DNA of 52,613 bases from an uncultured Bacilli bacterium (GTDB lineage Bacteria; Bacillota_I; Bacilli_A; RFN20; CAG-631): assembly GCA_947599835.1 (NCBI GenBank), contig CANQFQ010000005.1:64001-116613 (forward strand), read 5' to 3'. This document shows, in pieces, positions 7,213-52,613 of this stretch. The notes beneath the pieces are model-generated. The model saw only the letters and a list, made by a program, of their open reading frames with translations, had not been told where the DNA came from and ran no database searches. Within the stretch, counting starts at the first letter, position 1. Every line of letters begins with the position of its first letter. The translations under genes were made by a program, and so were the position numbers.

Positions 7213-7308
7213 GTCCTCTTACATTTGAACTTTTTTGAAGTTAATTTTGGAATTGTTTTATTTTTGAAGTTTAAATTTTAATTAAACTTTCCAAATGATA
7301 ATTAACGG

Positions 7309-7348
7309 AGTCAGGATATTATATAATAATATCTTGACTTTTTTTTAA
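7309..7348 (+). terminator. Rho-independent terminator after the protease gene
   Basis: AGTCAGGATATTAT pairs with ATAATATCTTGACT (one mismatch) and is followed by a run of T. The distal arm and T-run double as the -35 region of the rplM promoter. Confidence 0.85.
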
Positions 7349-7362
7349 AAGATTGCTATTAT
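7334..7362 (+). promoter_or_regulatory. Promoter of rplM-rpsI
   Basis: TTGACT (7334-7339), 17 bases, TATTAT (7357-7362). The -35 lies in the 3' arm of the preceding terminator. A second -10-like TATAAT at 7322-7327 has no good -35 partner. Confidence 0.6.
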
Positions 7363-7412
7363 AGTAACCGGCACTTTGCTTGCCTTAGTAGCCCCGGTAC
7401 AGTTACTAAGAT
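7362..7412 (+). promoter_or_regulatory. Ribosomal protein L13 leader-like RNA
   Basis: Upstream of rplM, nested complementary segments form a compact stem-loop: TAGTAAC (7362-7368) with GTTACTA (7402-7408), ACCGG (7367-7371) with CCGGT (7394-7398), and GGCA with TGCC around a seven-base loop. Firmicutes are known to carry an autoregulatory L13 leader here. The class is assigned from position and pairing, not from an alignment. Confidence 0.65.
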
Positions 7413-7432
7413 TTGTAAGGGAGGAAAATAAT

Positions 7433-7873
7433 ATGCAACGTCAAACAACAATGGCGAAGCCAAAAGAAATTACCCGTAAATGGTATGTTGTCGATGCTAC
7501 CAATGTTCCATTAGGAAGATTAGCATCACAAGTAGCAATGGTATTAACAGGAAAAGATAAGCCAACATATACTCCAAATATCGATACTGGAGATTATGTA
7601 ATTATTTTAAATTGCAATAAAGTTGCTTTAACGGGAAACAAATTAAAAACAAAAAATTATTACAATCATTCACAATATTTAGGTGGATTAAGAACACGTT
7701 CAGCAAAAACGATGATGGAAAAATATCCAGTAGAAATGGTTGAAAGAGCCGTATGGGGAATGTTACCAAAAGGTTCATTAGGTAGACAAATGTATAAAAA
7801 ATTATTTGTTTATGAAGGAAACACTCATCGTCATGAAGCTCAAAAACCTGAAGTGTTAAAAATTAAGTTATAG
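7433..7873 (+). CDS. rplM: 50S ribosomal protein L13
   Basis: This 146-residue large-subunit protein has the L13 blocks KWYVVDATNVPLGRLAS, GDYVIILNC, MVERAVWGMLPKGSLGR and LFVYEGNTHRHEAQKPE. The ATG at 7433 is chosen because GGGAGGAAA lies just upstream and the length then fits the family; longer in-frame starts would run into the leader structure. It is cotranscribed with rpsI, 12 bases downstream, and is probably feedback-regulated through the leader. Confidence 0.97.
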   Translation: MQRQTTMAKPKEITRKWYVVDATNVPLGRLASQVAMVLTGKDKPTYTPNIDTGDYVIILNCNKVALTGNKLKTKNYYNHSQYLGGLRTRSAKTMMEKYPVEMVERAVWGMLPKGSLGRQMYKKLFVYEGNTHRHEAQKPEVLKIKL

Positions 7874-7885
7874 GAGGAAATATCA

Positions 7886-8299
7886 ATGGCAGCGAAAAAG
7901 AAAACACAAGAAGTCGTACGTTATTGTGGAACTGGTAGAAGAAAAGCTTCAGTTGCAAGAGTTGCTTTAGTTCCTGGAACTGGAAATATTCTAGTTAATG
8001 GAAGAAAAGTTGAAGAATATTTACCTTCTGCAACATTTATTATGGATTTAAAACAACCTTTAACTGCAACTGAAAATGCCGCACGCTTTGATGTTATTGT
8101 AAACGTTTATGGTGGCGGATTTTCTGGTCAAACAGGTGCAATTCGTTTAGGTATTGCTAGAGCTCTTTTAAAAGCTTCTAACGAATATCGTCCAACATTA
8201 AAAGCATTAGGATTATTAACGCGTGATGCAAGAGTGAAAGAACGTAAGAAATATGGTCTTAAAGGCGCACGTAGAGCACCTCAATTCTCAAAACGTTAA
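7886..8299 (+). CDS. rpsI: 30S ribosomal protein S9
   Basis: This 137-residue small-subunit protein ends in the characteristic basic tail RRAPQFSKR that reaches the P-site tRNA. The [12 protein letters not shown] and [22 protein letters not shown] blocks are clear. An AGGAGG ribosome binding site precedes the ATG. It is the second gene of the rplM-rpsI operon and is followed by a strong terminator. Confidence 0.97.
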
Positions 8300-8320
8300 T
8301 TGTTCTTCAAATGTTTATTT

Positions 8321-8348
8321 AAAGTCCGATTTATTCGGACTTTTTTTT
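8321..8348 (+). terminator. Rho-independent terminator after rpsI
   Basis: AAAGTCCGA (8321-8329), loop TTTAT, TCGGACTTT (8335-8343), then more T. Confidence 0.95.
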
Positions 8349-8492
8349 ATTTTTTGAATTTTATCTTTTTTCATTTTTTTGATGGTTAACTTTCGATTTT
8401 CAAAAACATTTTATGGATGATTTGGCTTTTTTCTTTTTTTCTAGATTTAATATTTTTTATTTTAACATCATACAATTTTACGAGGTGACTTT

Positions 8493-9185
8493 ATGAAAAA
8501 ATATACTCTTTTTTTTATTCCCGTATTCTTTTTTTGTTTAAGTGTCATGAATCTCACTTTGATTACCGCAGAAAATAAAAAAGCGCAAATCATATCTGCG
8601 GTTTCTGGATATACCATTTTTATCGATCCAGGACATGGAGGAAAAGATAACGGAACGAGTTATAATACGGTTGTAGAAGATGAAATTAACCTTTCTATCG
8701 CCAATAAAATTTATGAACGATTACTTGAAGATCAAGCTAGAGTTTTAATAAGCCGTGTAGCCGATTATGACCTAAGTGATGTTTATGCTAAAAATCATAA
8801 AATTCAAGATTTAAATAAAAGAATAGAATATATGAAAAACTGTCATGCCGATGTATTTGTCAGTATTCATTTAAATGCATATAGGGATGAAAATGTCAGT
8901 GGTGCACAAGTGTTTTATAAAAGCAATCTAGACGAAAGTAAAAAATTTGCAAGTATCATGCAAAAAAACTTAAATCAGCTCAATGAAAAAGAAAAAAAAC
9001 CCAAAACAGGAGATTATTATCTTTTCAAAAATACCGGTAAAATCAATGGAATTATCATTGAGTGTGGTTTTTTATCAAATTCCTTAGAAAGAAAAAAACT
9101 CACTTCCGAAAAGTATCAAAAGAAAGTGGCAGAATGCATACACGAAGGAATCATTTCCTATTTTGAAACGAAAGGCCGTATTTAA
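8493..9185 (+). CDS. cwlD: N-acetylmuramoyl-L-alanine amidase, CwlD-like (Amidase_3)
   Basis: The protein has 230 residues with an N-terminal signal or anchor helix (about 3-27) and one Amidase_3 domain that cleaves the muramoyl-L-alanine bond. Zinc ligands are His48 (DPGHGG), Glu62 (VVEDEIN) and His126 (SIHLNA); catalytic Glu190 lies in IIECGFLSN. The ribosome binding site is CGAGGTGAC. In Bacillus, cwlD, needed for spore-cortex muramic lactam, also lies downstream of rplM-rpsI, and its length is similar. The symbol therefore rests on synteny and size as well as domain. A general wall amidase is the alternative. Confidence 0.8.
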   Translation: MKKYTLFFIPVFFFCLSVMNLTLITAENKKAQIISAVSGYTIFIDPGHGGKDNGTSYNTVVEDEINLSIANKIYERLLEDQARVLISRVADYDLSDVYAKNHKIQDLNKRIEYMKNCHADVFVSIHLNAYRDENVSGAQVFYKSNLDESKKFASIMQKNLNQLNEKEKKPKTGDYYLFKNTGKINGIIIECGFLSNSLERKKLTSEKYQKKVAECIHEGIISYFETKGRI

Positions 9186-9214
9186 TTCATAAAAATGTAA
9201 AAACTATTTTTGAG

Positions 9215-9643
9215 GTGATTTTTATCAAAAATTTTTTTACAAAATTTTATCATTTTCTAGCCCATTTGGGATATAGTCTAATGCAACTAACACTGATGCT
9301 TGTCCTTTCCTTTTTTGTCATTTCTGTCAAACTAGTCAATGAAAAAAGTCCAAATCCGTATTGTATTGTTGCGAATCAAAACATTACATTAGAACTTCAT
9401 TATGATGCCATTGATTATTATACTTATGAAATCGAATGTAATACTTTAATGGCTGAAATTTATCTTTTAGATCATATTGATAAAAAACAAGCCGTGGCCT
9501 TATTAGTCCAAATTAAACAACAATTAGAAGATCATCAAATGAAAATTATGACGCATTTCACTTTAAATGGGGAAAATTTAAAAAATGTAATGTATGCCAA
9601 TTTAAATTTAGGGCATGAGGGCTTAAGTTATGTGGGCGGGTGA
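9215..9643 (+). CDS. Small single-pass membrane protein of unknown function
   Basis: Not recognised. It has 142 residues from a GTG at 9215, with a basic start, a membrane helix at about 17-40 (YSLMQLTLMLVLSFFVISV) and a soluble domain of about 100 residues. The start is uncertain. The GTG lies inside the GAGGTGA element that serves as ribosome binding site for other genes here (8493, 19366, 41083, 42087), and the codon at the expected spacing is ATC at 9224 (ATCAAAAAT). So either GTG or a rare ATC start is used. It lies 29 bases after the amidase gene, probably cotranscribed. Confidence 0.55.
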   Translation: MIFIKNFFTKFYHFLAHLGYSLMQLTLMLVLSFFVISVKLVNEKSPNPYCIVANQNITLELHYDAIDYYTYEIECNTLMAEIYLLDHIDKKQAVALLVQIKQQLEDHQMKIMTHFTLNGENLKNVMYANLNLGHEGLSYVGG

Positions 9644-9649
9644 AAAGAT

Positions 9650-9678
9650 TTGAATTTTGTATATTATAATAGTATAAT
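9650..9678 (+). promoter_or_regulatory. Promoter upstream of tsaC and the ATP synthase gene cluster
   Basis: TTGAAT (9650-9655), 17 bases, TATAAT (9673-9678). It is the only strong promoter seen before the tightly packed tsaC-rpiB-atp genes and probably drives all of them. Confidence 0.75.
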
Positions 9679-9699
9679 ATACATATTGGAGGAAACGGG

Positions 9700-10317
9700 A
9701 TGGAAACCAAAAAATATGACCGTGAACAGATAGCTAATTTATGTCAAGATCTTCTAGCTGAAAAGGTGGTTGGATTTCCTACGGATACTGTTTATGGACT
9801 AGCGATTTCTAGTTATAGCAGTCAAGCATTTTCGAATTTAGTAGAAATCAAAAAAAGGCCAATTACAAAACCTCTTTCGGTAATGGTTGGCGATATTTGT
9901 CAAATTGACTCTTTAGCGCTGGTAGATGAAAGACGTCAACGAATGTTACAAGCTTTTTTACCGGGCCCAGTAACTTTCATTTTAAAAGCAAAAGAAAACC
10001 TACCTTATTTTATGACCCTTGGTCAGTCAACCATCGGCATTCGTGTCCCTAATCATCCAATAAGTTTAGCTATTTTGAATCAAGTAAAGATTCCTTTATT
10101 GGTTACTAGTGCGAATCTTTCGAATCAAGAAGCACTACTCAAAGCAAAGGATGTTTATCATCTATTTCATTCTCAGCTTGCTTCATTAATAGATGTTGAT
10201 AGTTTAGGTCATCAAGCTTCAACGATTATTGATTTAACAAATCAAAAGCCAATCATTATTAGAAAAGGTCCCATCACTGAAAAAGAAGTGTTGGCCGTTT
10301 GGGAGGAAACAAAATGA
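9700..10317 (+). CDS. tsaC: L-threonylcarbamoyladenylate synthase (YrdC/Sua5 family)
   Basis: This 205-residue enzyme makes threonylcarbamoyl-AMP from Thr, bicarbonate and ATP for t6A37 modification of ANN-decoding tRNAs. The YrdC core motifs are FPTDTVYGLA, IKKRPITKPLSVMVG, LPGPVTFIL, IGIRVPNH and LLVTSANLS. The length fits the short TsaC form without the Sua5 C-terminal domain. GGAGGAAAC gives a strong ribosome binding site. Its stop overlaps the rpiB start, and the Bacillus homologue also lies upstream of rpiB and the atp operon. Confidence 0.93.
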   Translation: METKKYDREQIANLCQDLLAEKVVGFPTDTVYGLAISSYSSQAFSNLVEIKKRPITKPLSVMVGDICQIDSLALVDERRQRMLQAFLPGPVTFILKAKENLPYFMTLGQSTIGIRVPNHPISLAILNQVKIPLLVTSANLSNQEALLKAKDVYHLFHSQLASLIDVDSLGHQASTIIDLTNQKPIIIRKGPITEKEVLAVWEETK

Positions 10318-10757
10318 AAATCGCTATTGGATCAGATCATGGGGGTTTCGAATTAAAACAAGCCATTATGCAAACTTTAATCAATGAAATCGAGTGGGTG
10401 GATTGTGGTACTTATAATTTAAATTCTTGTGATTATCCTGATTTTGCCTTTGCTACAGCTTCGAAAGTTTCAAATCACGAATGCGATTATGGCATTGTGA
10501 TTTGTAAAAGCGGGATTGGCATGTCCATTGCTGCAAATAAGGTGAAAGGCATTCGCTGTGCGCTCGTTCAAAATGAAACCAATGCCATTTTATCCAAGCA
10601 ACACAACAATTCAAATATGTTGGCATTGGGAGCCAATGATGTCAATTTAAAACACGCCATTTCAATCATTCATGCTTGGTTAAATGCTTCTTTTTTAAAC
10701 GATCGACACGCCCATCGAATTCAAAAAATTATGGATTATGAAAATCAAAAGCAATGA
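10314..10757 (+). CDS. rpiB: Ribose 5-phosphate isomerase B
   Basis: This 147-residue RpiB/LacAB-family enzyme interconverts ribulose and ribose 5-phosphate. Visible are IAIGSDHGGFELK, the catalytic Cys in VICKSGIGMSIAANK (the usual GTGIG appears as SGIG), and NNSNMLALGAND. The ATG at 10314 is preferred because it follows GGGAGGAAAC at normal spacing and matches the family start MKIAIGSDHGG. It overlaps the tsaC stop and the start of atpI. Confidence 0.93.
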   Translation: MKIAIGSDHGGFELKQAIMQTLINEIEWVDCGTYNLNSCDYPDFAFATASKVSNHECDYGIVICKSGIGMSIAANKVKGIRCALVQNETNAILSKQHNNSNMLALGANDVNLKHAISIIHAWLNASFLNDRHAHRIQKIMDYENQKQ

Positions 10758-11127
10758 AAAAAATCGAATTATTCGAAATAGTTTAATTAGCCTTGGCATT
10801 CTTTTTTTAATTCTTTTATGTTGTAGTTTCATTTTTCATTTTTATTATGCCATCGCACTAGCGTTTTTGATTTCTGGAATCGTCGGTATAAGTTTATTTT
10901 ATTTTTTTTATCAGCAAATCGAAAAAAGTACAGATCGCATGTTAAAACAAACACTTCGTTTCAATTTTTTAATTCGAATGCTGATTTATCTTGTTTGTTT
11001 AATTGCTTTATATTTTATATTTAAGCAAAATAAGTGGGTCATTTTAGCTTCCTTAGGAGGTTATTTGATTCCTAAGATGGTAATCATTATTTTATTTAGT
11101 CAAAGAAATAGGGGAAAAAGCAAATGA
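10738..11127 (+). CDS. atpI: ATP synthase protein I (AtpI-like)
   Basis: This 129-residue protein has four membrane segments (about 14-33, 35-55, 75-92, 98-118). Sequence conservation in this family is low; the call rests on topology, size and position directly before atpB. AtpI is thought to help assemble the c-ring. Its start overlaps the end of rpiB by 20 bases and its end overlaps atpB by four. Confidence 0.75.
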   Translation: MKIKSNEKNRIIRNSLISLGILFLILLCCSFIFHFYYAIALAFLISGIVGISLFYFFYQQIEKSTDRMLKQTLRFNFLIRMLIYLVCLIALYFIFKQNKWVILASLGGYLIPKMVIIILFSQRNRGKSK

Positions 11128-11891
11128 AAAAGATTTGGAATTACATTGTCCATGAAATGCCTGCGGAACTAATGGTTTCTCTTTTTGTCATGCTAATCAT
11201 CGCCATTATTGCTATCATTTTGGGACATGCAATTAAAAAAGCTGACCCCACGAAAGCACCTAAAGGGCTTGCTTTTGTAGCTGACTTTTTAGTCGATCAT
11301 AGTTTAAATTCGGTCAATGGTACTTTAGGAACAGCTTATGAAAAATTTGTTCCTTACTATATCTTTTTAATTTTATTTATTCCACTTTGTTTTGTCAGTG
11401 GTTTGTTTAGTTTACCTTCTCCTATTATGTATTTTTCAATTCCTTTAACTTTAGCCATTGTTTCATTTTTAGGAATTCAAATTTCTTCCATTTATTATAA
11501 TAAATGGAGTTATTTAAAAGGATTTACTGATCCTTTGCCTCCATGGCTTCCTATTTTGGCACCGGTCAATTTATTAGGAAAAATTGCACCGATTCTATCT
11601 TTATCCATTCGGATGTTTGGTAATGCCATTGCGGGCTATATGTTAATGACGTTAGTTTATTGGGCGACAGGGGCTTTATCTGACACGCTTATTTCGGCTT
11701 TACATTTATCTGCTCGAGGAATTAATTTTGTGGGCGTTTTTGTAGCTCCGTTATTACATGCTTATTTAGATGTTTTTTCCGCCTTTATTCAAACTTTAAT
11801 ATTTGTAACATTAACGATGTTATTAATATCGGTTGAAATTCCGGCTCCTGTAGCAAAAAAAGAAAAGAATAAAAAGAAAGTGAGGGTTTAA
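11124..11891 (+). CDS. atpB: ATP synthase F0 subunit a
   Basis: This 255-residue membrane subunit forms the ion half-channels against the c-ring. The block SIRMFGNAIAGYMLM carries the essential Arg, and the final helix region (AYLDVFSAFIQTLIF) holds the conserved Gln. Five to six membrane helices are evident. The ATGA overlap with atpI indicates translational coupling. The tail is rich in Lys. Confidence 0.95.
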   Translation: MKKIWNYIVHEMPAELMVSLFVMLIIAIIAIILGHAIKKADPTKAPKGLAFVADFLVDHSLNSVNGTLGTAYEKFVPYYIFLILFIPLCFVSGLFSLPSPIMYFSIPLTLAIVSFLGIQISSIYYNKWSYLKGFTDPLPPWLPILAPVNLLGKIAPILSLSIRMFGNAIAGYMLMTLVYWATGALSDTLISALHLSARGINFVGVFVAPLLHAYLDVFSAFIQTLIFVTLTMLLISVEIPAPVAKKEKNKKKVRV

Positions 11892-11893
11892 TA

Positions 11894-12166
11894 ATGTTAG
11901 AATTTTTAGTTAGTGTAATGCCTATGCTTGCTGATTTAAGTGTTGGCAAAGGTTTAGCTGCCATTGGTGCAGGGATTGCCGTTTTAACGGGTCTAGGATC
12001 AGGAATAGGTGAAGGGAATATTGCCGCTCATGCAATGGATGCAATTGGCCGTAATCCTGAAGCTGCTGATGTGATTCGTAAAAACATGATTTTAGGTATT
12101 GCTTTAGCCGAAACCACTGGGATTTATGGATTTGCCATTGCCTTTTTAATTATTTTTGTATTGTAG
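11894..12166 (+). CDS. atpE: ATP synthase F0 subunit c, Na+-type two-carboxylate motif
   Basis: This 90-residue hairpin of two membrane helices forms the rotor ring. The ion-binding carboxylate is Glu73 in ALAETTGIYG. Helix 1 has Glu40 in GSGIGEGNIA where the Ilyobacter Na+ enzyme has Gln32, and Thr74, Thr75 and Tyr78 sit at the spacing of Ser66, Thr67 and Tyr70. An additional Glu at this position defines the two-carboxylate Na+ rotor described for Fusobacterium nucleatum. Na+ coupling is therefore predicted, though not shown. The polar loop RNPEA is normal. The ribosome binding site is GAGGG. Confidence 0.95.
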   Translation: MLEFLVSVMPMLADLSVGKGLAAIGAGIAVLTGLGSGIGEGNIAAHAMDAIGRNPEAADVIRKNMILGIALAETTGIYGFAIAFLIIFVL

Positions 12167-34450: not shown

Positions 34451-34505
34451 CAAATAAATATAAAAAAATGGTATCCTCATTGTACATAACAAGGAGGATT
34501 TTTTA

Positions 34506-34877
34506 ATGGGAAGATATTATACAGATCAAGAGAGATACGAATTTTGTAGAAAATATAGGTTATCCAAGAAAACCATTAGTGAATTTGCCAATGAAAATGG
34601 AATAAATAGACATACATTTGGGGATTGGTTAAATGCATATGGAAATATTGATGGCAAATTCATTAATATCAAAGACACATGTGAAAATGAAAATGAAATA
34701 GTAAAAACTAAAGATTATCGTGTTAATGTACTTGATGAAATGGCCAAGGTAAAAAAAAGCAATCATTTTTCACGATTTGATCATAGCATAGTTGTAATAG
34801 AAATTAGAGACATCAAAATCACAACATCGTTAGAACAAGCAGAGGTATTGCTAGGAAGGATATTGGGAAATGATTGA
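34506..34877 (+). CDS. tnpA: IS66 TnpA-like helix-turn-helix protein, copy 1
   Basis: This 123-residue accessory protein has a helix-turn-helix pattern at about 9-40 (YEFCRKYRLSKKTISEFAN, then GINRHTFGDWLNAYG). The C-terminal part (VVIEIRDIKITTS) resembles other IS66 OrfA proteins. AAGGAGG precedes the ATG. It overlaps tnpB by eight bases. All three genes are required for IS66 movement in studied members. Confidence 0.85.
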   Translation: MGRYYTDQERYEFCRKYRLSKKTISEFANENGINRHTFGDWLNAYGNIDGKFINIKDTCENENEIVKTKDYRVNVLDEMAKVKKSNHFSRFDHSIVVIEIRDIKITTSLEQAEVLLGRILGND

Positions 34878-35217
34878 TTTTAGGAATTGTAAAAACATAT
34901 ATGTATATTCAGAATTTATAGATATGAGATTTGGAATTAAGAAGTTACAATTTTTAGTTGGAGTAAATTTTACAAATAGTGAGATAAGAAATTCAGTGTT
35001 TATATTTTGCTCTTCAAAAGAAAACCAAATAAAAATATATTATGAAGATGACTATGGGAGTTGGCTTTTACAAAATAAATTACATGATGGGAAATTCAAA
35101 TGGCCAAAGTTGACAAATAATAAGACAATAACAAAACAACAACTAATAGGATTATGTAAGGGTCTTGAAGTAATAGAATCAGATAGACCACAGGCAAAAG
35201 AATATTCATATTATTGA
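34870..35217 (+). CDS. tnpB: IS66 TnpB (Orf2-like), copy 1
   Basis: This 115-residue IS66 Orf2 protein has the family pattern: YSEFIDMRFGIKKL, NSVFIFCSSKENQIKI, YYEDDYGSWLLQNKL and GKFKWP. Its biochemical role is not known. It is translationally coupled to tnpA. Confidence 0.9.
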   Translation: MIDFRNCKNIYVYSEFIDMRFGIKKLQFLVGVNFTNSEIRNSVFIFCSSKENQIKIYYEDDYGSWLLQNKLHDGKFKWPKLTNNKTITKQQLIGLCKGLEVIESDRPQAKEYSYY

Positions 35218-35243
35218 TAAAGCAAAAACATCAAAAAAATTTT

Positions 35244-35274
35244 TTTAGTCTATATACAAAGTATATAGACTAAA
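35244..35274 (+). promoter_or_regulatory. Perfect hairpin upstream of tnpC, copy 1
   Basis: TTTAGTCTATATAC (35244-35257), loop AAA, GTATATAGACTAAA (35261-35274). A TATAAT follows at 35289-35294. It may limit transposase expression by attenuation or act as a protein site. No long U-run follows. Confidence 0.6.
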
Positions 35275-35322
35275 TTTGTTTTTTATGTTATAATTAAAGG
35301 CGAAAAAAGTGAGAAAAGAAAC

Positions 35323-36927
35323 ATGACTAGTAATGAAGAACTTTTGCAAATAATTAAACAATTAAGAGATGAAAATAAACAGTTAAGTGAAGCAAATAAA
35401 GAGCTTAATCAAGAATTAAAAGAAACAAAAGATAAACTTAATGAGACTGAATTGAAATTATATAAGGCCAATCAACAGTTAAATGAAGTATTATTAAAAA
35501 TAGCTGATTTACAAGAAAAAGAAAAAATATCAAGAACTAGCACTATTATTCCAAAATCAGAAAGAGTTAAAAATATTGTTCTTAATGAAACTGAAGAAAC
35601 TTTAAAAGAAGAGAAAGAGAAAAGAGCTAGTAACAAAGGCAAAAAATATAAAAAGAAAGCTTTTGATTATGAAAAATATGTTACTGAAACAAGAATCATT
35701 GAGCCCGATGAGAAAACATGTCCAACATGTGGAACTACTTTGGTTGAAGCAAGTAGCAAAGTAAGATATGTAGTTGAGATTGTTCCTGAGCAAATAAAAG
35801 TGACTAAATTAATAAAGAAAAGCATGAAATGTCCAAATTGTAATAAAAAAGATAACAAAATATATTATCCATTAGCAGATCCATTTAGTGGCAGTATATT
35901 ATCAACATCATTATTAAGTTATATTTTATATTACAAATATGAATTAGGCGTTCCTTTTGAGCATTTAGCCAATCATATGACTAAAACTGTAGGATTTGAA
36001 ATAACAAAGCAAAATCTTGCTAATTATGTTGCTAAAGGTGCTAAAATGCTAGAGAAAATATATTTACAAATGCTTGATGATCTTAAGAGCTCAAATTCCA
36101 AAGTCTTACATTCAGATGAAACGACATTAGTTGTAAGTCGTAAACCTGAAGATGACAAAAATAGGAAAGAAAGTTATGTTTATGTCTATACTTCTAGTTA
36201 TTATGATAAAAACCAAATACGAATTTATGATTTCCATGAATCAAGAAGTATTGGCAAAACAACTAAATGGCTTAAAGATTATTCAGGATACATAATTTGT
36301 GATGCTTATGTAGGATATGATGCATTAGTTAAATCTAATCCTAATATAAAATTACAAAGATGTTGGGCTCATGTTAGACGAAGATTTGCTAGCATTGTCA
36401 AGAATCTTCCTAAAGCAAAAAGAGAAGATTCTGATGCCTATAAAATTCTTTTAAAAATAGGGCAACTATTTAAATTTGAAAAAGAATATAGGGCAGATAA
36501 TTTAACACCAGATCAAATCTTAGAAAAAAGAAAAGGGCCAGAAATTCAACAAATAAAAAATGAATTGGAACAACAACTTTCTGGAATCACTCCTCATCCA
36601 AATTCTGCTTTAGCTGAGGCCATTAACTATACCAAGAACTGTTGGGATGATTTGTTTACTTATTTAGAAGATGGACATTTAGAAATGACCAACAACAATG
36701 CAGAAAGAGCTGTTAAACCATTTGTAGTTAGAAGAAAAGTATTTCAAACTTCTGGATCATATGCTGGTGCTAAATATACAACAATAATATTTTCTATTAT
36801 TCAAACAGCCCTTATCAACAATCTCAATATTGAAAAATATTTGAATTATATTTTTACAAACATCAATAAACCAGTTGATGAACTTTTACCATACTCAAAA
36901 GAAATTAGGAAAAATATTGGAAATTAA
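35323..36927 (+). CDS. tnpC: IS66 family transposase TnpC, copy 1
   Basis: This 534-residue DDE transposase has an N-terminal coiled coil (about 4-65), a zinc-binding motif (Cys133, Cys136, Cys170, Cys173) and a catalytic core with Asp265 (HSDETT), Asp327 (ICDAYVGYD) and Glu461 (NNNAERAVKP). The C-terminal IS66 segment is present. It looks intact. The ribosome binding site is weak (GTGAGAAAAGAAAC), in keeping with low transposase output. Confidence 0.95.
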   Translation: MTSNEELLQIIKQLRDENKQLSEANKELNQELKETKDKLNETELKLYKANQQLNEVLLKIADLQEKEKISRTSTIIPKSERVKNIVLNETEETLKEEKEKRASNKGKKYKKKAFDYEKYVTETRIIEPDEKTCPTCGTTLVEASSKVRYVVEIVPEQIKVTKLIKKSMKCPNCNKKDNKIYYPLADPFSGSILSTSLLSYILYYKYELGVPFEHLANHMTKTVGFEITKQNLANYVAKGAKMLEKIYLQMLDDLKSSNSKVLHSDETTLVVSRKPEDDKNRKESYVYVYTSSYYDKNQIRIYDFHESRSIGKTTKWLKDYSGYIICDAYVGYDALVKSNPNIKLQRCWAHVRRRFASIVKNLPKAKREDSDAYKILLKIGQLFKFEKEYRADNLTPDQILEKRKGPEIQQIKNELEQQLSGITPHPNSALAEAINYTKNCWDDLFTYLEDGHLEMTNNNAERAVKPFVVRRKVFQTSGSYAGAKYTTIIFSIIQTALINNLNIEKYLNYIFTNINKPVDELLPYSKEIRKNIGN

Positions 36928-36962
36928 AATCAGTCCAAGATAGCTCAAGACTGATTTTTTTA
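36926..36962 (+). terminator. Terminator after tnpC, copy 1
   Basis: AAAATCAGTC (36926-36935) pairs with GACTGATTTT (36949-36958), then T. Confidence 0.8.
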
Positions 36963-36965
36963 TAT

Positions 36966-36990
36966 AAGGGTGTAAAAATTTGACCTATAC
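36966..36990 (+). repeat. IS66 right terminal inverted repeat, inner copy
   Basis: Ends TTTGACCTATAC, joined directly to AAAAAAATGG of the second unit without any left repeat or target duplication. Confidence 0.85.
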
Positions 36991-37034
36991 AAAAAAATGG
37001 TATCCTCATTGTACATAACAAGGAGGATTTTTTA

Positions 37035-37406
37035 ATGGGAAGATATTATACAGATCAAGAGAGATACGAATTTTGTAGAAAATATAGGTTATCCAAGAAA
37101 ACCATTAGTGAATTTGCCAATGAAAATGGAATAAATAGACATACATTTGGGGATTGGTTAAATGCATATGGAAATATTGATGGCAAATTCATTAATATCA
37201 AAGACACATGTGAAAATGAAAATGAAATAGTAAAAACTAAAGATTATCGTGTTAATGTACTTGATGAAATGGCCAAGGTAAAAAAAAGCAATCATTTTTC
37301 ACGATTTGATCATAGCATAGTTGTAATAGAAATTAGAGACATCAAAATCACAACATCGTTAGAACAAGCAGAGGTATTGCTAGGAAGGATATTGGGAAAT
37401 GATTGA
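37035..37406 (+). CDS. tnpA: IS66 TnpA-like helix-turn-helix protein, copy 2
   Basis: The 123-residue product is identical to the copy at 34506-34877. Its ribosome binding site (AAGGAGG) is kept, but sequence more than 44 bases upstream differs from copy 1: the right end of unit 1 replaces the left end. Its promoter context therefore may differ. Confidence 0.85.
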   Translation: MGRYYTDQERYEFCRKYRLSKKTISEFANENGINRHTFGDWLNAYGNIDGKFINIKDTCENENEIVKTKDYRVNVLDEMAKVKKSNHFSRFDHSIVVIEIRDIKITTSLEQAEVLLGRILGND

Positions 37407-37746
37407 TTTTAGGAATTGTAAAAACATATATGTATATTCAGAATTTATAGATATGAGATTTGGAATTAAGAAGTTACAATTTTTAGTTGGAGTAAATTTT
37501 ACAAATAGTGAGATAAGAAATTCAGTGTTTATATTTTGCTCTTCAAAAGAAAACCAAATAAAAATATATTATGAAGATGACTATGGGAGTTGGCTTTTAC
37601 AAAATAAATTACATGATGGGAAATTCAAATGGCCAAAGTTGACAAATAATAAGACAATAACAAAACAACAACTAATAGGATTATGTAAGGGTCTTGAAGT
37701 AATAGAATCAGATAGACCACAGGCAAAAGAATATTCATATTATTGA
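37399..37746 (+). CDS. tnpB: IS66 TnpB (Orf2-like), copy 2
   Basis: The 115-residue product is identical to the copy at 34870-35217, with the same eight-base overlap with tnpA. Confidence 0.9.
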   Translation: MIDFRNCKNIYVYSEFIDMRFGIKKLQFLVGVNFTNSEIRNSVFIFCSSKENQIKIYYEDDYGSWLLQNKLHDGKFKWPKLTNNKTITKQQLIGLCKGLEVIESDRPQAKEYSYY

Positions 37747-37772
37747 TAAAGCAAAAACATCAAAAAAATTTT

Positions 37773-37803
37773 TTTAGTCTATATACAAAGTATATAGACT
37801 AAA
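37773..37803 (+). promoter_or_regulatory. Perfect hairpin upstream of tnpC, copy 2
   Basis: Same 14-bp stem and AAA loop as at 35244-35274. Confidence 0.6.
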
Positions 37804-37851
37804 TTTGTTTTTTATGTTATAATTAAAGGCGAAAAAAGTGAGAAAAGAAAC

Positions 37852-39456
37852 ATGACTAGTAATGAAGAACTTTTGCAAATAATTAAACAATTAAGAGATG
37901 AAAATAAACAGTTAAGTGAAGCAAATAAAGAGCTTAATCAAGAATTAAAAGAAACAAAAGATAAACTTAATGAGACTGAATTGAAATTATATAAGGCCAA
38001 TCAACAGTTAAATGAAGTATTATTAAAAATAGCTGATTTACAAGAAAAAGAAAAAATATCAAGAACTAGCACTATTATTCCAAAATCAGAAAGAGTTAAA
38101 AATATTGTTCTTAATGAAACTGAAGAAACTTTAAAAGAAGAGAAAGAGAAAAGAGCTAGTAACAAAGGCAAAAAATATAAAAAGAAAGCTTTTGATTATG
38201 AAAAATATGTTACTGAAACAAGAATCATTGAGCCCGATGAGAAAACATGTCCAACATGTGGAACTACTTTGGTTGAAGCAAGTAGCAAAGTAAGATATGT
38301 AGTTGAGATTGTTCCTGAGCAAATAAAAGTGACTAAATTAATAAAGAAAAGCATGAAATGTCCAAATTGTAATAAAAAAGATAACAAAATATATTATCCA
38401 TTAGCAGATCCATTTAGTGGCAGTATATTATCAACATCATTATTAAGTTATATTTTATATTACAAATATGAATTAGGCGTTCCTTTTGAGCATTTAGCCA
38501 ATCATATGACTAAAACTGTAGGATTTGAAATAACAAAGCAAAATCTTGCTAATTATGTTGCTAAAGGTGCTAAAATGCTAGAGAAAATATATTTACAAAT
38601 GCTTGATGATCTTAAGAGCTCAAATTCCAAAGTCTTACATTCAGATGAAACGACATTAGTTGTAAGTCGTAAACCTGAAGATGACAAAAATAGGAAAGAA
38701 AGTTATGTTTATGTCTATACTTCTAGTTATTATGATAAAAACCAAATACGAATTTATGATTTCCATGAATCAAGAAGTATTGGCAAAACAACTAAATGGC
38801 TTAAAGATTATTCAGGATACATAATTTGTGATGCTTATGTAGGATATGATGCATTAGTTAAATCTAATCCTAATATAAAATTACAAAGATGTTGGGCTCA
38901 TGTTAGACGAAGATTTGCTAGCATTGTCAAGAATCTTCCTAAAGCAAAAAGAGAAGATTCTGATGCCTATAAAATTCTTTTAAAAATAGGGCAACTATTT
39001 AAATTTGAAAAAGAATATAGGGCAGATAATTTAACACCAGATCAAATCTTAGAAAAAAGAAAAGGGCCAGAAATTCAACAAATAAAAAATGAATTGGAAC
39101 AACAACTTTCTGGAATCACTCCTCATCCAAATTCTGCTTTAGCTGAGGCCATTAACTATACCAAGAACTGTTGGGATGATTTGTTTACTTATTTAGAAGA
39201 TGGACATTTAGAAATGACCAACAACAATGCAGAAAGAGCTGTTAAACCATTTGTAGTTAGAAGAAAAGTATTTCAAACTTCTGGATCATATGCTGGTGCT
39301 AAATATACAACAATAATATTTTCTATTATTCAAACAGCCCTTATCAACAATCTCAATATTGAAAAATATTTGAATTATATTTTTACAAACATCAATAAAC
39401 CAGTTGATGAACTTTTACCATACTCAAAAGAAATTAGGAAAAATATTGGAAATTAA
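37852..39456 (+). CDS. tnpC: IS66 family transposase TnpC, copy 2
   Basis: The 534-residue product is identical to copy 1, with the same zinc-finger cysteines and DDE residues. Identity across the whole protein means the duplication is recent, or is maintained by recombination, or reflects an assembly repeat. Confidence 0.95.
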   Translation: MTSNEELLQIIKQLRDENKQLSEANKELNQELKETKDKLNETELKLYKANQQLNEVLLKIADLQEKEKISRTSTIIPKSERVKNIVLNETEETLKEEKEKRASNKGKKYKKKAFDYEKYVTETRIIEPDEKTCPTCGTTLVEASSKVRYVVEIVPEQIKVTKLIKKSMKCPNCNKKDNKIYYPLADPFSGSILSTSLLSYILYYKYELGVPFEHLANHMTKTVGFEITKQNLANYVAKGAKMLEKIYLQMLDDLKSSNSKVLHSDETTLVVSRKPEDDKNRKESYVYVYTSSYYDKNQIRIYDFHESRSIGKTTKWLKDYSGYIICDAYVGYDALVKSNPNIKLQRCWAHVRRRFASIVKNLPKAKREDSDAYKILLKIGQLFKFEKEYRADNLTPDQILEKRKGPEIQQIKNELEQQLSGITPHPNSALAEAINYTKNCWDDLFTYLEDGHLEMTNNNAERAVKPFVVRRKVFQTSGSYAGAKYTTIIFSIIQTALINNLNIEKYLNYIFTNINKPVDELLPYSKEIRKNIGN

Positions 39457-39491
39457 AATCAGTCCAAGATAGCTCAAGACTGATTTTTTTA
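39455..39491 (+). terminator. Terminator after tnpC, copy 2
   Basis: Same stem as at 36926-36962. Confidence 0.8.
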
Positions 39492-39494
39492 TAT

Positions 39495-39519
39495 AAGGGT
39501 GTAAAAATTTGACCTATAC
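39495..39519 (+). repeat. IS66 right terminal inverted repeat, outer copy
   Basis: Ends GACCTATAC at 39519, followed by the GCACAAAA target duplication. Confidence 0.88.
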
Positions 39520-49039: not shown

Positions 49040-50422
49040 ATGAATAAAGAAATTGAAATTACAATCGATCATTTGACAAAAGATGGCGTAGGTGTATGTC
49101 GTCTAGAAAGTGGCAAGAATTTATATGTTGCGAATTGTTTTTGTAATGAAAAATTGCTCGTGACGATTGATTACGAAGGAAAAAAACAAGTTTATGGACA
49201 TATTAAAAAAGTGATCGTATCCCATCCAAAACGCGTTGTCCCTAAATGTGATGTTTATCATCATTGTGGGGGATGTCATTTATCTTTTATGAGTTATGAT
49301 GCGCAACTTCAATTCAAGCAAGATATCGTAAAAAAAATATATGAACGGGCGGGCTTTAATCATGTTCATGTTCATGAAACTGTGGGAATGGATTTTCCCT
49401 ATCAATATCGCAACAAAGTACAAACTCCCGTAAAATTAAAAAAAGGAAAAATTGTGGCTGGTTTTTATAAAGAAAACACGCATGAGGTTGTCCCTTTTGA
49501 CTTTTGTCATGTTCAATCAAAGCAAAGTAATGAAATCATCAAAAAAGTAATCCAAGCCATGATAGAAAATAAAATACCCCCTTATGATGAAGATAAAAAG
49601 ACTGGTGTAATTCGTCATTTATTAATTCGAGAAAGTGATACTGAAACCATGCTTGTCCTAGTCACTTATAAAGATTCCTTTCCAGGTCGTAAAAACTTTG
49701 TTCAATCCATTAGAAAATATTTACCAAATCTAACAACGATTGTCCAAAATGTAAATACTCGCCATACTAATGTAATCTTGGGTGAAAAAGAAAATATTTT
49801 ATATGGTAAAGGTTATATTGTAGATACTTTATTAGGACATAGCTATAAAATATCACCAAAATCTTTTTATCAAATCAATAAAATACAAACACAAAAGTTA
49901 TATCAAAAAGCAATAGAGTTAGCCCATCTTAAAAAAAGCGATATCATTTTAGATGCTTATTGTGGCATTGGAACCATTGGCTTAAGTGTAGCCAAGTATG
50001 TAAAGCAAGTAGTGGGTGTCGAAATTGTCAGTGATGCAATTAAAGATGCTAAAATGAATGCTAAAAACAACCATTTAGATAATTGTTTGTTTTATTGTGA
50101 AGATGCTTCTAAGTTTATGTGTGACAATATGAATCAATTCGATGTTGTATTTGTAGATCCACCTAGAAAAGGTTGTGATCAACCATTTTTAGATGCTTTA
50201 ATAAAACAAAAGCCTCATAAAATTGTTTATATTTCATGTAATCCTGAAACACAAGCTAGTAATCTAACTTATCTTGTAGAACATGGTTATTCCTTTAAGG
50301 ATATCTATCCATTTGATATGTTTCCTCAAAGTTATCATGTTGAGACGTGCGTCTTATTGATCCACCAAAAGTCTACCGAGTATTTTTATGTCGAATATAA
50401 ATCAAGGAATAATGTTTCCTGA
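49040..50422 (+). CDS. rlmD: 23S rRNA (uracil-C5)-methyltransferase, RlmD/RumA type
   Basis: This 460-residue class I methyltransferase has an N-terminal TRAM domain (about 1-58), a 4Fe-4S cluster motif (Cys70, Cys76, Cys79, Cys156), AdoMet motif DAYCGIGTIGLS, FVDPPRKGCD and the catalytic Cys400 in ISCNPETQA. It methylates a uridine in 23S rRNA; RlmCD-type dual specificity is common in Gram-positives. The ATG at 49040 follows GGTGA; upstream codons overlap the promoter. The last 15 residues (TEYFYVEYKSRNNVS) extend beyond the usual end, next to the compositional break. Confidence 0.92.
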   Translation: MNKEIEITIDHLTKDGVGVCRLESGKNLYVANCFCNEKLLVTIDYEGKKQVYGHIKKVIVSHPKRVVPKCDVYHHCGGCHLSFMSYDAQLQFKQDIVKKIYERAGFNHVHVHETVGMDFPYQYRNKVQTPVKLKKGKIVAGFYKENTHEVVPFDFCHVQSKQSNEIIKKVIQAMIENKIPPYDEDKKTGVIRHLLIRESDTETMLVLVTYKDSFPGRKNFVQSIRKYLPNLTTIVQNVNTRHTNVILGEKENILYGKGYIVDTLLGHSYKISPKSFYQINKIQTQKLYQKAIELAHLKKSDIILDAYCGIGTIGLSVAKYVKQVVGVEIVSDAIKDAKMNAKNNHLDNCLFYCEDASKFMCDNMNQFDVVFVDPPRKGCDQPFLDALIKQKPHKIVYISCNPETQASNLTYLVEHGYSFKDIYPFDMFPQSYHVETCVLLIHQKSTEYFYVEYKSRNNVS

Positions 50423-50451: not shown

Positions 50452-52613
50452 ATGGCAGATATTTTTATTAGCTATACGACTGCCGATGTGGACTATGCAT
50501 TGCAGCTGTACCGCTATTTCCAAACTATGGGGGTAAATGCTTGGTTTGCTCCCTGCCGCATTGCTGGCGGCCAGAATTTTGCAGAGGAGATTGGCAAGGA
50601 GTTGGGCTGGTGCGACCCAGATGACATCGTTCAAACAACTGTCAGCCGCAGTGAAAACCTGGGACGGGCGGGAGCAGTGGTGGTATTGCTTTCTAAAAAT
50701 GCGATGCAGTCACGATGGGTAATGAAAGAAGTCACGATGGCGGTGGATGAAGATAAATTAATTCTTGTGGCTCGTCTGGATCACACACCAGACACGCCTG
50801 CGTTCCACCTCCTCCTGAAAAATGTGCAGCACATTGATGCCTATCATCTGACACGTGCTGCGAAGGAAGAGATATACACCAGCGTATTGCCTGTTTTGTC
50901 CAAACAGAAACCATTGCTAAGACCGGATGAACATATGACCTATGATGAGCTGGGCATCGACTCCATCACTATTGGAGACCCCTATTATACTAGCGGAGAT
51001 ACGTTACGTTTTTCTCTGCGGCGCGAGTGCTTTCTGTTGGCGCCGCCTACCGGATGCGTGTCAGAAGAACAACAAACTTGGGCACGGGAGCATTTTGCAC
51101 CTAGCGATACCCTGCTGAATTACACATGGAAGCAGCTTTTTGAGGCTATCCCGATAGTAGACCTGCCGCAGCGTATTGCCGCCAGCCGGAAAAAGGTGTT
51201 TTTGCAGTTTTTAAACCAAGAAAACGGATGCTATTACAACAATAAAAAGTACGGTATTTACAACATACGACCCTTTGGCCGCACCGAAGACCTAAGCGAA
51301 ACACCGATTTTGGAGATTGAGCTGTATGAGACGGATTACTTTACTCACCGGGTAATGAAAGACGTATGCAAGCAGCTGGTGGTTGAAAAGCATCCATATT
51401 TTGATCGTTTGAACTATATCACTCTGAAAGAAAACTGTATCTTCTTCACTTCGCTGGGGCTCAACCTACTGTTGTTAGATTCCGCTTATCAGGAGGAACC
51501 GTGTACCATTTTGACCGAACGCTCGACCAACGCGGCAGAAACATACCAATTACAGGAATATTCAGTATCGGTGGTGGAAGGGATATCGCTAAGCGATTTC
51601 GACCCATATAAAAAAACCGTAAACATTACAATGGCAGTATACCGCGGTCTGCTGGAGGAGTTGGGCGTGCAGGATAATATGCTCAAGGCGGATACTCTGA
51701 GATTTTATGAATTGTTTGTCAACCGCAGAAATTTGGAAATGGGGCTGACCTGCTCGATCGAATTGAACAAATCCAACTCCATTGAGAATGACGTTTTGCG
51801 CTGCCACGGCAAAGACGAGCTGATTGAGATCGCTAACAAGCGCCTTTTGCCTCTGAAGGAACTGAAGGAATTTGCTTTTCGCAACCGGGATGCCTTTTTG
51901 CCGCAAGCACTGTTTACCATCCTTTCGTATTACGATGCCATTGGTGTGCCGTTGCTGGATCGTCATTATGCAGTAGCGCAAACAGAAGAAATGTACTTGA
52001 TTGGTAAAGATGGACAAAGTACAATTTGTGGAGATGCTATCAGCAAAGGCCCACATTATATTGCGGTGATCGATGGTGCTACGCCTAAGGGGCAAAGGCT
52101 GTGGAACGGCATGCACGGTGACGTGTTTGTAGCACAGATGCTGGCTCGCGCTATAGAAGAGTTGAATCCGAATTTGACCGCTGCACAGGCCATCACTTGC
52201 TTGAACGATTGTGTAGTGCAGGCGTATCGAGAAGCGGGCATTGAGTTTAATACCCTACCGCCCGAAGAACAACTACAGGCTAGCGTCATTCTATACAGCG
52301 TAAAACGTAGGGAAGTATGGAGCTTTGGGGATTGCAAGCTACGCATCAACGCTCGCAATATCGACCACACCAAAAAAATCGATCAGATGCTCAGTGATCT
52401 GCGTGCTTTCTGTATCGAAACACGGCTAGCGGCCGGGTTGCCTGTACTGAATGATGATGGTAGCGACTATGGCCGGGTTCAGATTCTACCGTTTTTGAAA
52501 AAACAAACGATTTTTGCCAACACAGGAAGATCTTTTGGCTATGATGTAATCAATGGCGGGACTATCCGAACAGAAAATATCAAGGTATATGAGGTGAAAA
52601 CAGGGGATCACGT
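50452..52613 (+). CDS. TIR domain protein with Nudix-like and PP2C-like regions (3' truncated)
   Basis: The frame stays open for 720 codons to the window edge, from ATG behind GAGAGGAGAATCGCC. Residues 1-150 are a TIR domain: DIFISYTTAD, WFAPCRI, GQNFAEEI and SKNAMQSRWVMKEVTMA, where Glu93 sits at the position of the TIR NADase catalytic Glu. The stretch between GQNFAEEI and VVVLLS is about 15-20 residues longer than usual. Residues 350-450 contain RGLLEELGV, like the end of a Nudix box. Residues 520-700 resemble PP2C: AVIDGATPKG (Asp541) and VWSFGDCKLRIN (Asp627). Base composition is clearly richer in G and C than upstream genes. Function unknown; NAD-cleaving or phosphatase signalling in defence is an inference. 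Confidence 0.8.
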   Translation, partial: MADIFISYTTADVDYALQLYRYFQTMGVNAWFAPCRIAGGQNFAEEIGKELGWCDPDDIVQTTVSRSENLGRAGAVVVLLSKNAMQSRWVMKEVTMAVDEDKLILVARLDHTPDTPAFHLLLKNVQHIDAYHLTRAAKEEIYTSVLPVLSKQKPLLRPDEHMTYDELGIDSITIGDPYYTSGDTLRFSLRRECFLLAPPTGCVSEEQQTWAREHFAPSDTLLNYTWKQLFEAIPIVDLPQRIAASRKKVFLQFLNQENGCYYNNKKYGIYNIRPFGRTEDLSETPILEIELYETDYFTHRVMKDVCKQLVVEKHPYFDRLNYITLKENCIFFTSLGLNLLLLDSAYQEEPCTILTERSTNAAETYQLQEYSVSVVEGISLSDFDPYKKTVNITMAVYRGLLEELGVQDNMLKADTLRFYELFVNRRNLEMGLTCSIELNKSNSIENDVLRCHGKDELIEIANKRLLPLKELKEFAFRNRDAFLPQALFTILSYYDAIGVPLLDRHYAVAQTEEMYLIGKDGQSTICGDAISKGPHYIAVIDGATPKGQRLWNGMHGDVFVAQMLARAIEELNPNLTAAQAITCLNDCVVQAYREAGIEFNTLPPEEQLQASVILYSVKRREVWSFGDCKLRINARNIDHTKKIDQMLSDLRAFCIETRLAAGLPVLNDDGSDYGRVQILPFLKKQTIFANTGRSFGYDVINGGTIRTENIKVYEVKTGDH

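What the first reader, a model, noticed from the sequence alone, without database searches (positions are those of the whole stretch)
50452..52613. TIR / Nudix-like / PP2C-like multi-domain protein, possible new signalling or defence system
Seen directly: one frame of at least 720 codons starts with a good TIR domain that keeps the Glu of the SxxxxxxSxWVxxEV motif (Glu93). It carries RGLLEELGV, resembling a Nudix box end, and then AVIDGATPKG and WSFGDCKLRIN, resembling the metal-binding Asp motifs of PP2C phosphatases. From family knowledge, bacterial TIR domains often cleave NAD+ or make cyclic ADP-ribose signals, Nudix domains bind or hydrolyse nucleotide-diphosphate compounds, and PP2C proteins dephosphorylate Ser/Thr. 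Joining them in one chain suggests a sensor-effector with a nucleotide signal and a phosphatase switch. I do not know of a described system with this arrangement; the absence of a search makes novelty an inference.
Basis: partly seen in the sequence, partly recalled or inferred. Interest (0 to 1): 0.78.

Follow-up and report, generated by a model that had tools for sequence, protein, structure and literature searches.

The report
Three-enzyme fusion protein: TIR–Nudix–PP2C
A bacterial gene, cut off by the end of its contig, joins an NAD-cleaving immune-type (TIR) domain to a nucleotide-processing domain whose predicted fold matches human NUDT22 and to a protein-phosphatase-type domain; relatives keep the phosphatase but swap the likely killing domain, as new immune-like switches do, although a role in defence is not shown.

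Summary
Window 50452-52611 is one open frame (720 codons), cut by the contig end; ten full-length relatives of about 780 aa, mostly from rumen and gut Clostridia, have the same three-domain order with 42-65% identity to one reference relative. TIR is confirmed by Pfam. AlphaFold models plus Foldseek confirm the other two: the middle resembles human NUDT22, an atypical Nudix UDP-sugar hydrolase, across its whole length; the C-terminus is PP2C. TIR Glu93, Nudix-helix R398/E402/E403 and the PP2C metal aspartates are invariant. The same PP2C family also pairs with 2TM-Nudix and TPR-TIR modules, and a 2TM-Nudix-PP2C fusion nests inside the TPR-TIR-PP2C clade: effector exchange around a shared PP2C core. 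Best model: a self-contained switch in which Nudix and PP2C sense or regulate and the TIR consumes NAD+. This mechanism is inferred: no conserved partner gene, no consistent defence-island context in ten loci. In this genome the gene is foreign: GC jumps from 29% to 47% after a break in the 3' end of rlmD, meaning an integrated element or, less likely, an assembly chimera. Novelty: new variant; no description was found in the held literature.

The parts
50452..52611 (+). TIR-NUDT22-like Nudix-PP2C fusion gene, 3' end missing (contig end; about 64 codons lost)
50452..50901 (+). TIR domain (residues 1-150); catalytic-position Glu93 at 50728-50730, with invariant S81, S87 and W89
   Evidence: Pfam PF13676 E=2.2e-14; invariant residues; Foldseek TIR hits 8i87, 4c6r
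50920..51981 (+). NUDT22-like region (residues 157-510): N-terminal alpha/beta subdomain plus Nudix core
   Evidence: AF2 pLDDT 86, pTM 0.87; Foldseek to human NUDT22 E=5.5e-10 over 342 columns
51643..51669 (+). Nudix-helix motif RGLLEELGV (residues 398-406), with R398, E402 and E403 invariant
51988..52611 (+). PP2C domain, residues 513-720 (cut); CGD528, D541-G (DGATPKG), GD627C; the SDGY and DDR motifs are lost beyond the contig end but present in the ten full-length relatives
49040..50422 (+). rlmD (23S rRNA uracil methyltransferase); sequence shared with the sister genome ends at about 50343 (...SYHVE), after which the C-terminus and downstream DNA are foreign

Best explanation
The gene encodes a single-chain TIR-NUDT22-like Nudix-PP2C protein: an accessory, horizontally moving, immune-type switch. 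Shown here: the three folds, conservation of their catalytic or ligand positions, the fixed domain order in 11 members, and the use of the same PP2C family with exchangeable N-terminal modules (2TM-Nudix, TPR-TIR, TIR-Nudix). Inferred: the TIR is the output and cleaves NAD+ when released or oligomerised; the Nudix region binds or hydrolyses a nucleotide or nucleotide-sugar signal and gates the TIR; the PP2C domain dephosphorylates a protein, or the chain itself, and so sets whether the switch is armed. The likely purpose is stress- or phage-triggered growth arrest.
For: Fusion conserved in 11 members. TIR by Pfam with invariant Glu93. NUDT22-like fold. PP2C by Pfam in relatives and by fold. 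PP2C tree: TIR-Nudix-PP2C lies in one clade (100/96), while the 2TM-Nudix-PP2C fusion L079 nests with the TPR-TIR-PP2C fusions L071 and L077 (100/97), i.e. effector exchange on one core. The pairing of membrane or NADase effector with Nudix parallels the CBASS effector Cap16, which has TM and NUDIX domains (PMC10419184). The gene is rare and patchy and clearly foreign in this genome.
Against: No defence-island enrichment: neighbours in the ten loci are mixed, and PADLOC hits at E<=1e-8 are scattered singletons or generic types. No conserved partner gene and no signal-making enzyme. Other PP2C relatives sit in ABC-transporter operons, so the PP2C domain is not defence-specific. No activity has been measured. 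The Nudix box lacks the first Glu, so this domain may bind without hydrolysing.
Confidence: 0.5

Rival explanations
1. A nucleotide-processing enzyme chain rather than a toxin switch: the TIR splits NAD+ to ADP-ribose products, the Nudix domain splits the diphosphate, and the PP2C domain removes the phosphate, ending a signal or recycling nucleotides.
For: All three active-site sets are conserved. NUDT22 is a real hydrolase of UDP-glucose (PMC10101856). Stand-alone PP2C relatives lie in importer operons, one of them also holding an apparent nucleoside phosphorylase, which would fit small-molecule phosphatase work.
Against: Swapping the TIR-Nudix part for 2TM-Nudix or TPR-TIR on the same PP2C is hard to fit to one metabolic route; PP2C enzymes mostly act on proteins; the Nudix box is incomplete.
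Confidence: 0.2
2. A Ser/Thr phosphatase signalling protein in which the TIR is only an interaction scaffold and the Nudix domain only a ligand sensor; not a cell-arrest system.
For: PP2C is the one part common to all architectures; the neighbourhoods are ordinary.
Against: The TIR keeps S81, S87, W89 and E93 without exception, which a pure scaffold need not do; the gene is rare and patchy, unlike core signalling genes.
Confidence: 0.2
3. The gene does not belong to this genome: the contig is an assembly chimera at the conserved 3' end of rlmD. The protein family stays real either way, so this rival concerns only the host and is not exclusive with the others.
For: The break sits in a conserved stretch; 29% versus 47% GC; no 47% GC contig was found among this genome's integrase or recombinase loci; the junction sequence was not found elsewhere.
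Against: The rlmD 3' end is a known integration hot spot for conjugative elements in Firmicutes (own knowledge); the frame of rlmD is restored; missing element contigs are expected when bins are sorted by composition.
Confidence: 0.3

Closest known systems
Bacterial TIR NADase effectors (e.g. SPARTA TIR-APAZ, SpbK, Cat1 CARF-TIR)
   Same: TIR domain with the conserved Glu, fused to a sensing or regulatory part
   Different: No APAZ, CARF, STING or SAVED sensor; the regulatory part is NUDT22-like Nudix plus PP2C
Human NUDT22 (UDP-glucose/galactose hydrolase)
   Same: The whole 157-510 region matches its fold, much better than other Nudix structures; both have an unconventional Nudix box
   Different: About 11% identity; bacterial; fused to TIR and PP2C; substrate unknown
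Bacterial PP2C phosphatases (PstP, tPphA)
   Same: Fold and metal-binding aspartates
   Different: Distinct subfamily below the Pfam cut-off in the window itself; fused to effector modules; first motif is CGD instead of ED in the fused members
CBASS effector Cap16 (TM + NUDIX)
   Same: A lethal output module joined to a Nudix-type domain; relatives of this gene use 2TM-Nudix
   Different: No CD-NTase nearby; TIR output; PP2C added; no PADLOC match to the middle region

Membership tests
TIR domain, NADase type | TIR fold or profile | tested here: met
   PF13676 54.4 bits against cut-off 28; Foldseek TIR hits
TIR domain, NADase type | Catalytic Glu after SxW | tested here: met
   E93 invariant in 11/11
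TIR domain, NADase type | NAD+ cleavage | not testable with these tools
   needs an assay
Nudix superfamily | Nudix fold | tested here: met
Nudix superfamily | Canonical Nudix box GX5EX7REUXEEXGU | tested here: not met
   RGLLEELGV: first Glu is Gly in all members and the upstream spacing is non-standard; R, E and E kept; no Pfam Nudix hit
NUDT22-like | Full-length structural match including the N-terminal subdomain | tested here: met
   E=5.5e-10, 342 columns, TM 0.57/0.67; next non-NUDT22 hit 1.3e-5
NUDT22-like | UDP-sugar hydrolysis | not testable with these tools
   needs an assay
PP2C phosphatase | PP2C fold or profile | tested here: met
   PF13672 passes in relatives L071 and L079; Foldseek PstP E=1e-8 for relative L011. 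The window domain alone has no Pfam hit
PP2C phosphatase | Metal-binding Asp set (ED, DG, SDG, DD/DN) | tested here: met
   D532, D545, D730, D774 and D775 (L011 numbering) invariant in all full-length members; the last three lie beyond the contig end in the window
Thoeris | ThsA partner next to the TIR gene | tested here: not met
   No ThsA in 58 neighbours of ten relatives; only weak ThsB similarity
CBASS | Adjacent CD-NTase | tested here: not met
   None among 58 neighbours of ten relatives; the window side is cut by the contig end
Anti-phage defence gene | Protects against phage | not testable with these tools
   needs infection assays

The most novel reading that the evidence does not exclude
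A previously undescribed class of prokaryotic immune switch built on a PP2C phosphatase core, with plug-in outputs (TIR NADase, TPR-TIR, 2TM membrane effector) gated by a NUDT22-like nucleotide-sugar sensor; activation would be controlled by protein dephosphorylation or by nucleotide-sugar levels instead of a cyclic nucleotide.
Probability: 0.3. Interest if true: 0.85.

Novelty: new variant of a known kind. Interest (0 to 1): 0.62.

Why it matters
If the model is right, bacteria gate NAD+-consuming TIR effectors through a phosphatase and a NUDT22-like domain, a control logic not described in the held literature. It would link phosphorylation state or nucleotide-sugar supply to suicide-type responses, and give a bacterial relative of the little-understood NUDT22 fold. 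The swappable outputs make it testable with a few constructs.

Tried and rejected
Direct scans of genomes and viral contigs with the full protein found nothing; a profile of the PP2C part then found 88 loci, of which 80 were kept. No phage record and no viral contig encodes a relative. First pairwise and profile comparisons of the middle with the 2TM-Nudix proteins were negative; with more sequences they align colinearly at single-comparison E=0.0018 over 196 columns, and a trimmed version beats 150 of 150 column shuffles, but by a small margin, so that homology is likely, not proved. Sa_NUDIX (PF18167) gave no hit even in control genomes, so that test is uninformative. The middle has no credible sequence match in the PDB. 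TIR hits elsewhere in Clostridia (L122, L125) belong to other TIR proteins. A search for the other end of an integrated element in this genome was negative. Paper searches for TIR+PP2C+Nudix found nothing relevant.

Full report
Observation. The frame 50452-52611 is open from an ATG to the window end, 720 codons. The window end is the physical end of contig G000:C5, so the gene is truncated and nothing downstream can be read. Full-length relatives run about 780 residues, so about 64 residues are missing.

Family. No close relative of the whole protein was found by direct scanning, but the C-terminal third had distant matches on plasmids and in one other genome. A profile built from these found 80 loci. 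Ten of them encode the complete architecture, with all three parts of the window protein matched. They come mainly from rumen and gut Clostridia, plus Solobacterium. They align end to end with 42-65% identity to the reference member L011 and 138 invariant columns including the window.

Domains. TIR: Pfam PF13676, 54 bits, with S81, S87, W89 and E93 invariant. Middle, residues 157-510: AlphaFold model of pLDDT 86 and pTM 0.87. Foldseek puts human NUDT22 first in six entries, best E=5.5e-10 over 342 columns, while the next structure of another kind has E=1.3e-5. NUDT22 converts UDP-glucose to glucose-1-phosphate and UMP (PMC10101856) and lacks a conventional Nudix box (PMC5688067), as does this domain: RGLLEELGV keeps R, E and E but not the first Glu. 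C-terminus: PP2C. The window part alone has no Pfam hit, but relatives pass the PP2C_2 cut-off, and the full-length model of relative L011 (pLDDT 78.7) matches PstP and tPphA. All metal-binding aspartates are conserved; the last ones lie beyond the contig end in the window.

Architecture exchange. The same PP2C family occurs (i) alone, (ii) directly after or fused to proteins with predicted N-terminal TM segments and a Nudix-like region (L006, L067, L082; fused L035, L079), (iii) directly after or fused to TPR-TIR proteins (L044, L055, L057, L074, L083; fused L071, L077), and (iv) in the TIR-Nudix-PP2C form. The TM and Nudix-like assignment in (ii) was read from sequence and a weak profile match, not from a model. 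In a tree of 81 PP2C domains, the TIR-Nudix-PP2C members form one supported clade with three stand-alone copies (100/96), and the 2TM-Nudix fusion L079 lies inside the TPR-TIR clade next to L071 and L077 (100/97). The simplest reading is that output modules are exchanged on a shared PP2C core.

Context. Neighbours of the ten relatives differ from locus to locus and are largely metabolic or transport genes; PADLOC matches are few and scattered, with no ThsA and no CD-NTase. The gene is rare: in a sample of 391 Clostridia genomes only the centre genome has it, and in 392 genomes of the window's phylum only the window's own. Genomes that carry it often hold further TIR genes.

In this genome. GC rises from about 29% to 47% at the gene, and third-position GC from 0.22 to 0.52, whereas in most relatives the gene has a GC close to its flanks. 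Alignment with the same-genus genome stops inside the 3' end of rlmD, at ...SYHVE, and the rlmD frame then continues for about 25 new residues. This fits an element integrated at rlmD, a known hot spot (own knowledge), but an assembly chimera is not excluded: no second junction or matching element contig was found.

Mechanism. Shown: folds, conserved active-site positions, fixed order, modular exchange. Inferred: TIR output by NAD+ cleavage, gating by the Nudix domain, setting by the PP2C domain. Whether the purpose is anti-phage defence is open. Verdict: a real, apparently undescribed domain architecture and a good candidate switch, scored as a new variant of modular TIR effector proteins.

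Noticed in passing
window 34462-39519: A 2529-bp IS66-like transposase unit is present twice, head to tail, with 100% identity and no spacer: a recent tandem copy or an assembly effect.
   Followed up: partly
L089, L058, L078, L068, L080, L088, L053 (around 7.9-9.9 kb in most): Stand-alone PP2C relatives precede solute-binding proteins of ABC or TctC-type importers; in the two loci read more fully an AraC-like regulator lies just upstream. Another, possibly metabolic, use of this PP2C family.
   Followed up: partly
L032, L033, L039, L040 (around 7.2-8.8 kb): In several Ktedonobacteria the PP2C gene overlaps by a few bases an upstream gene for a 254-261 aa protein with an apparent N-terminal TM segment and a possible nucleotide-binding domain; may be a further module type.
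   Followed up: no
L136 (G000:C20) 6585-12048, minus strand: Genes that look like part of a Wadjet (JetABC-type, SMC-like) defence locus in the same genome, on a contig that also has an integrase; identified by eye only.
   Followed up: no
L008 7911-8738: The Streptomyces plasmid copy of the PP2C gene is split into two frames and is probably a pseudogene.
   Followed up: no
L020 10424-12889, minus strand: A second TIR protein (822 aa) lies about 1.6 kb from the TIR-Nudix-PP2C gene in Solobacterium.
   Followed up: no
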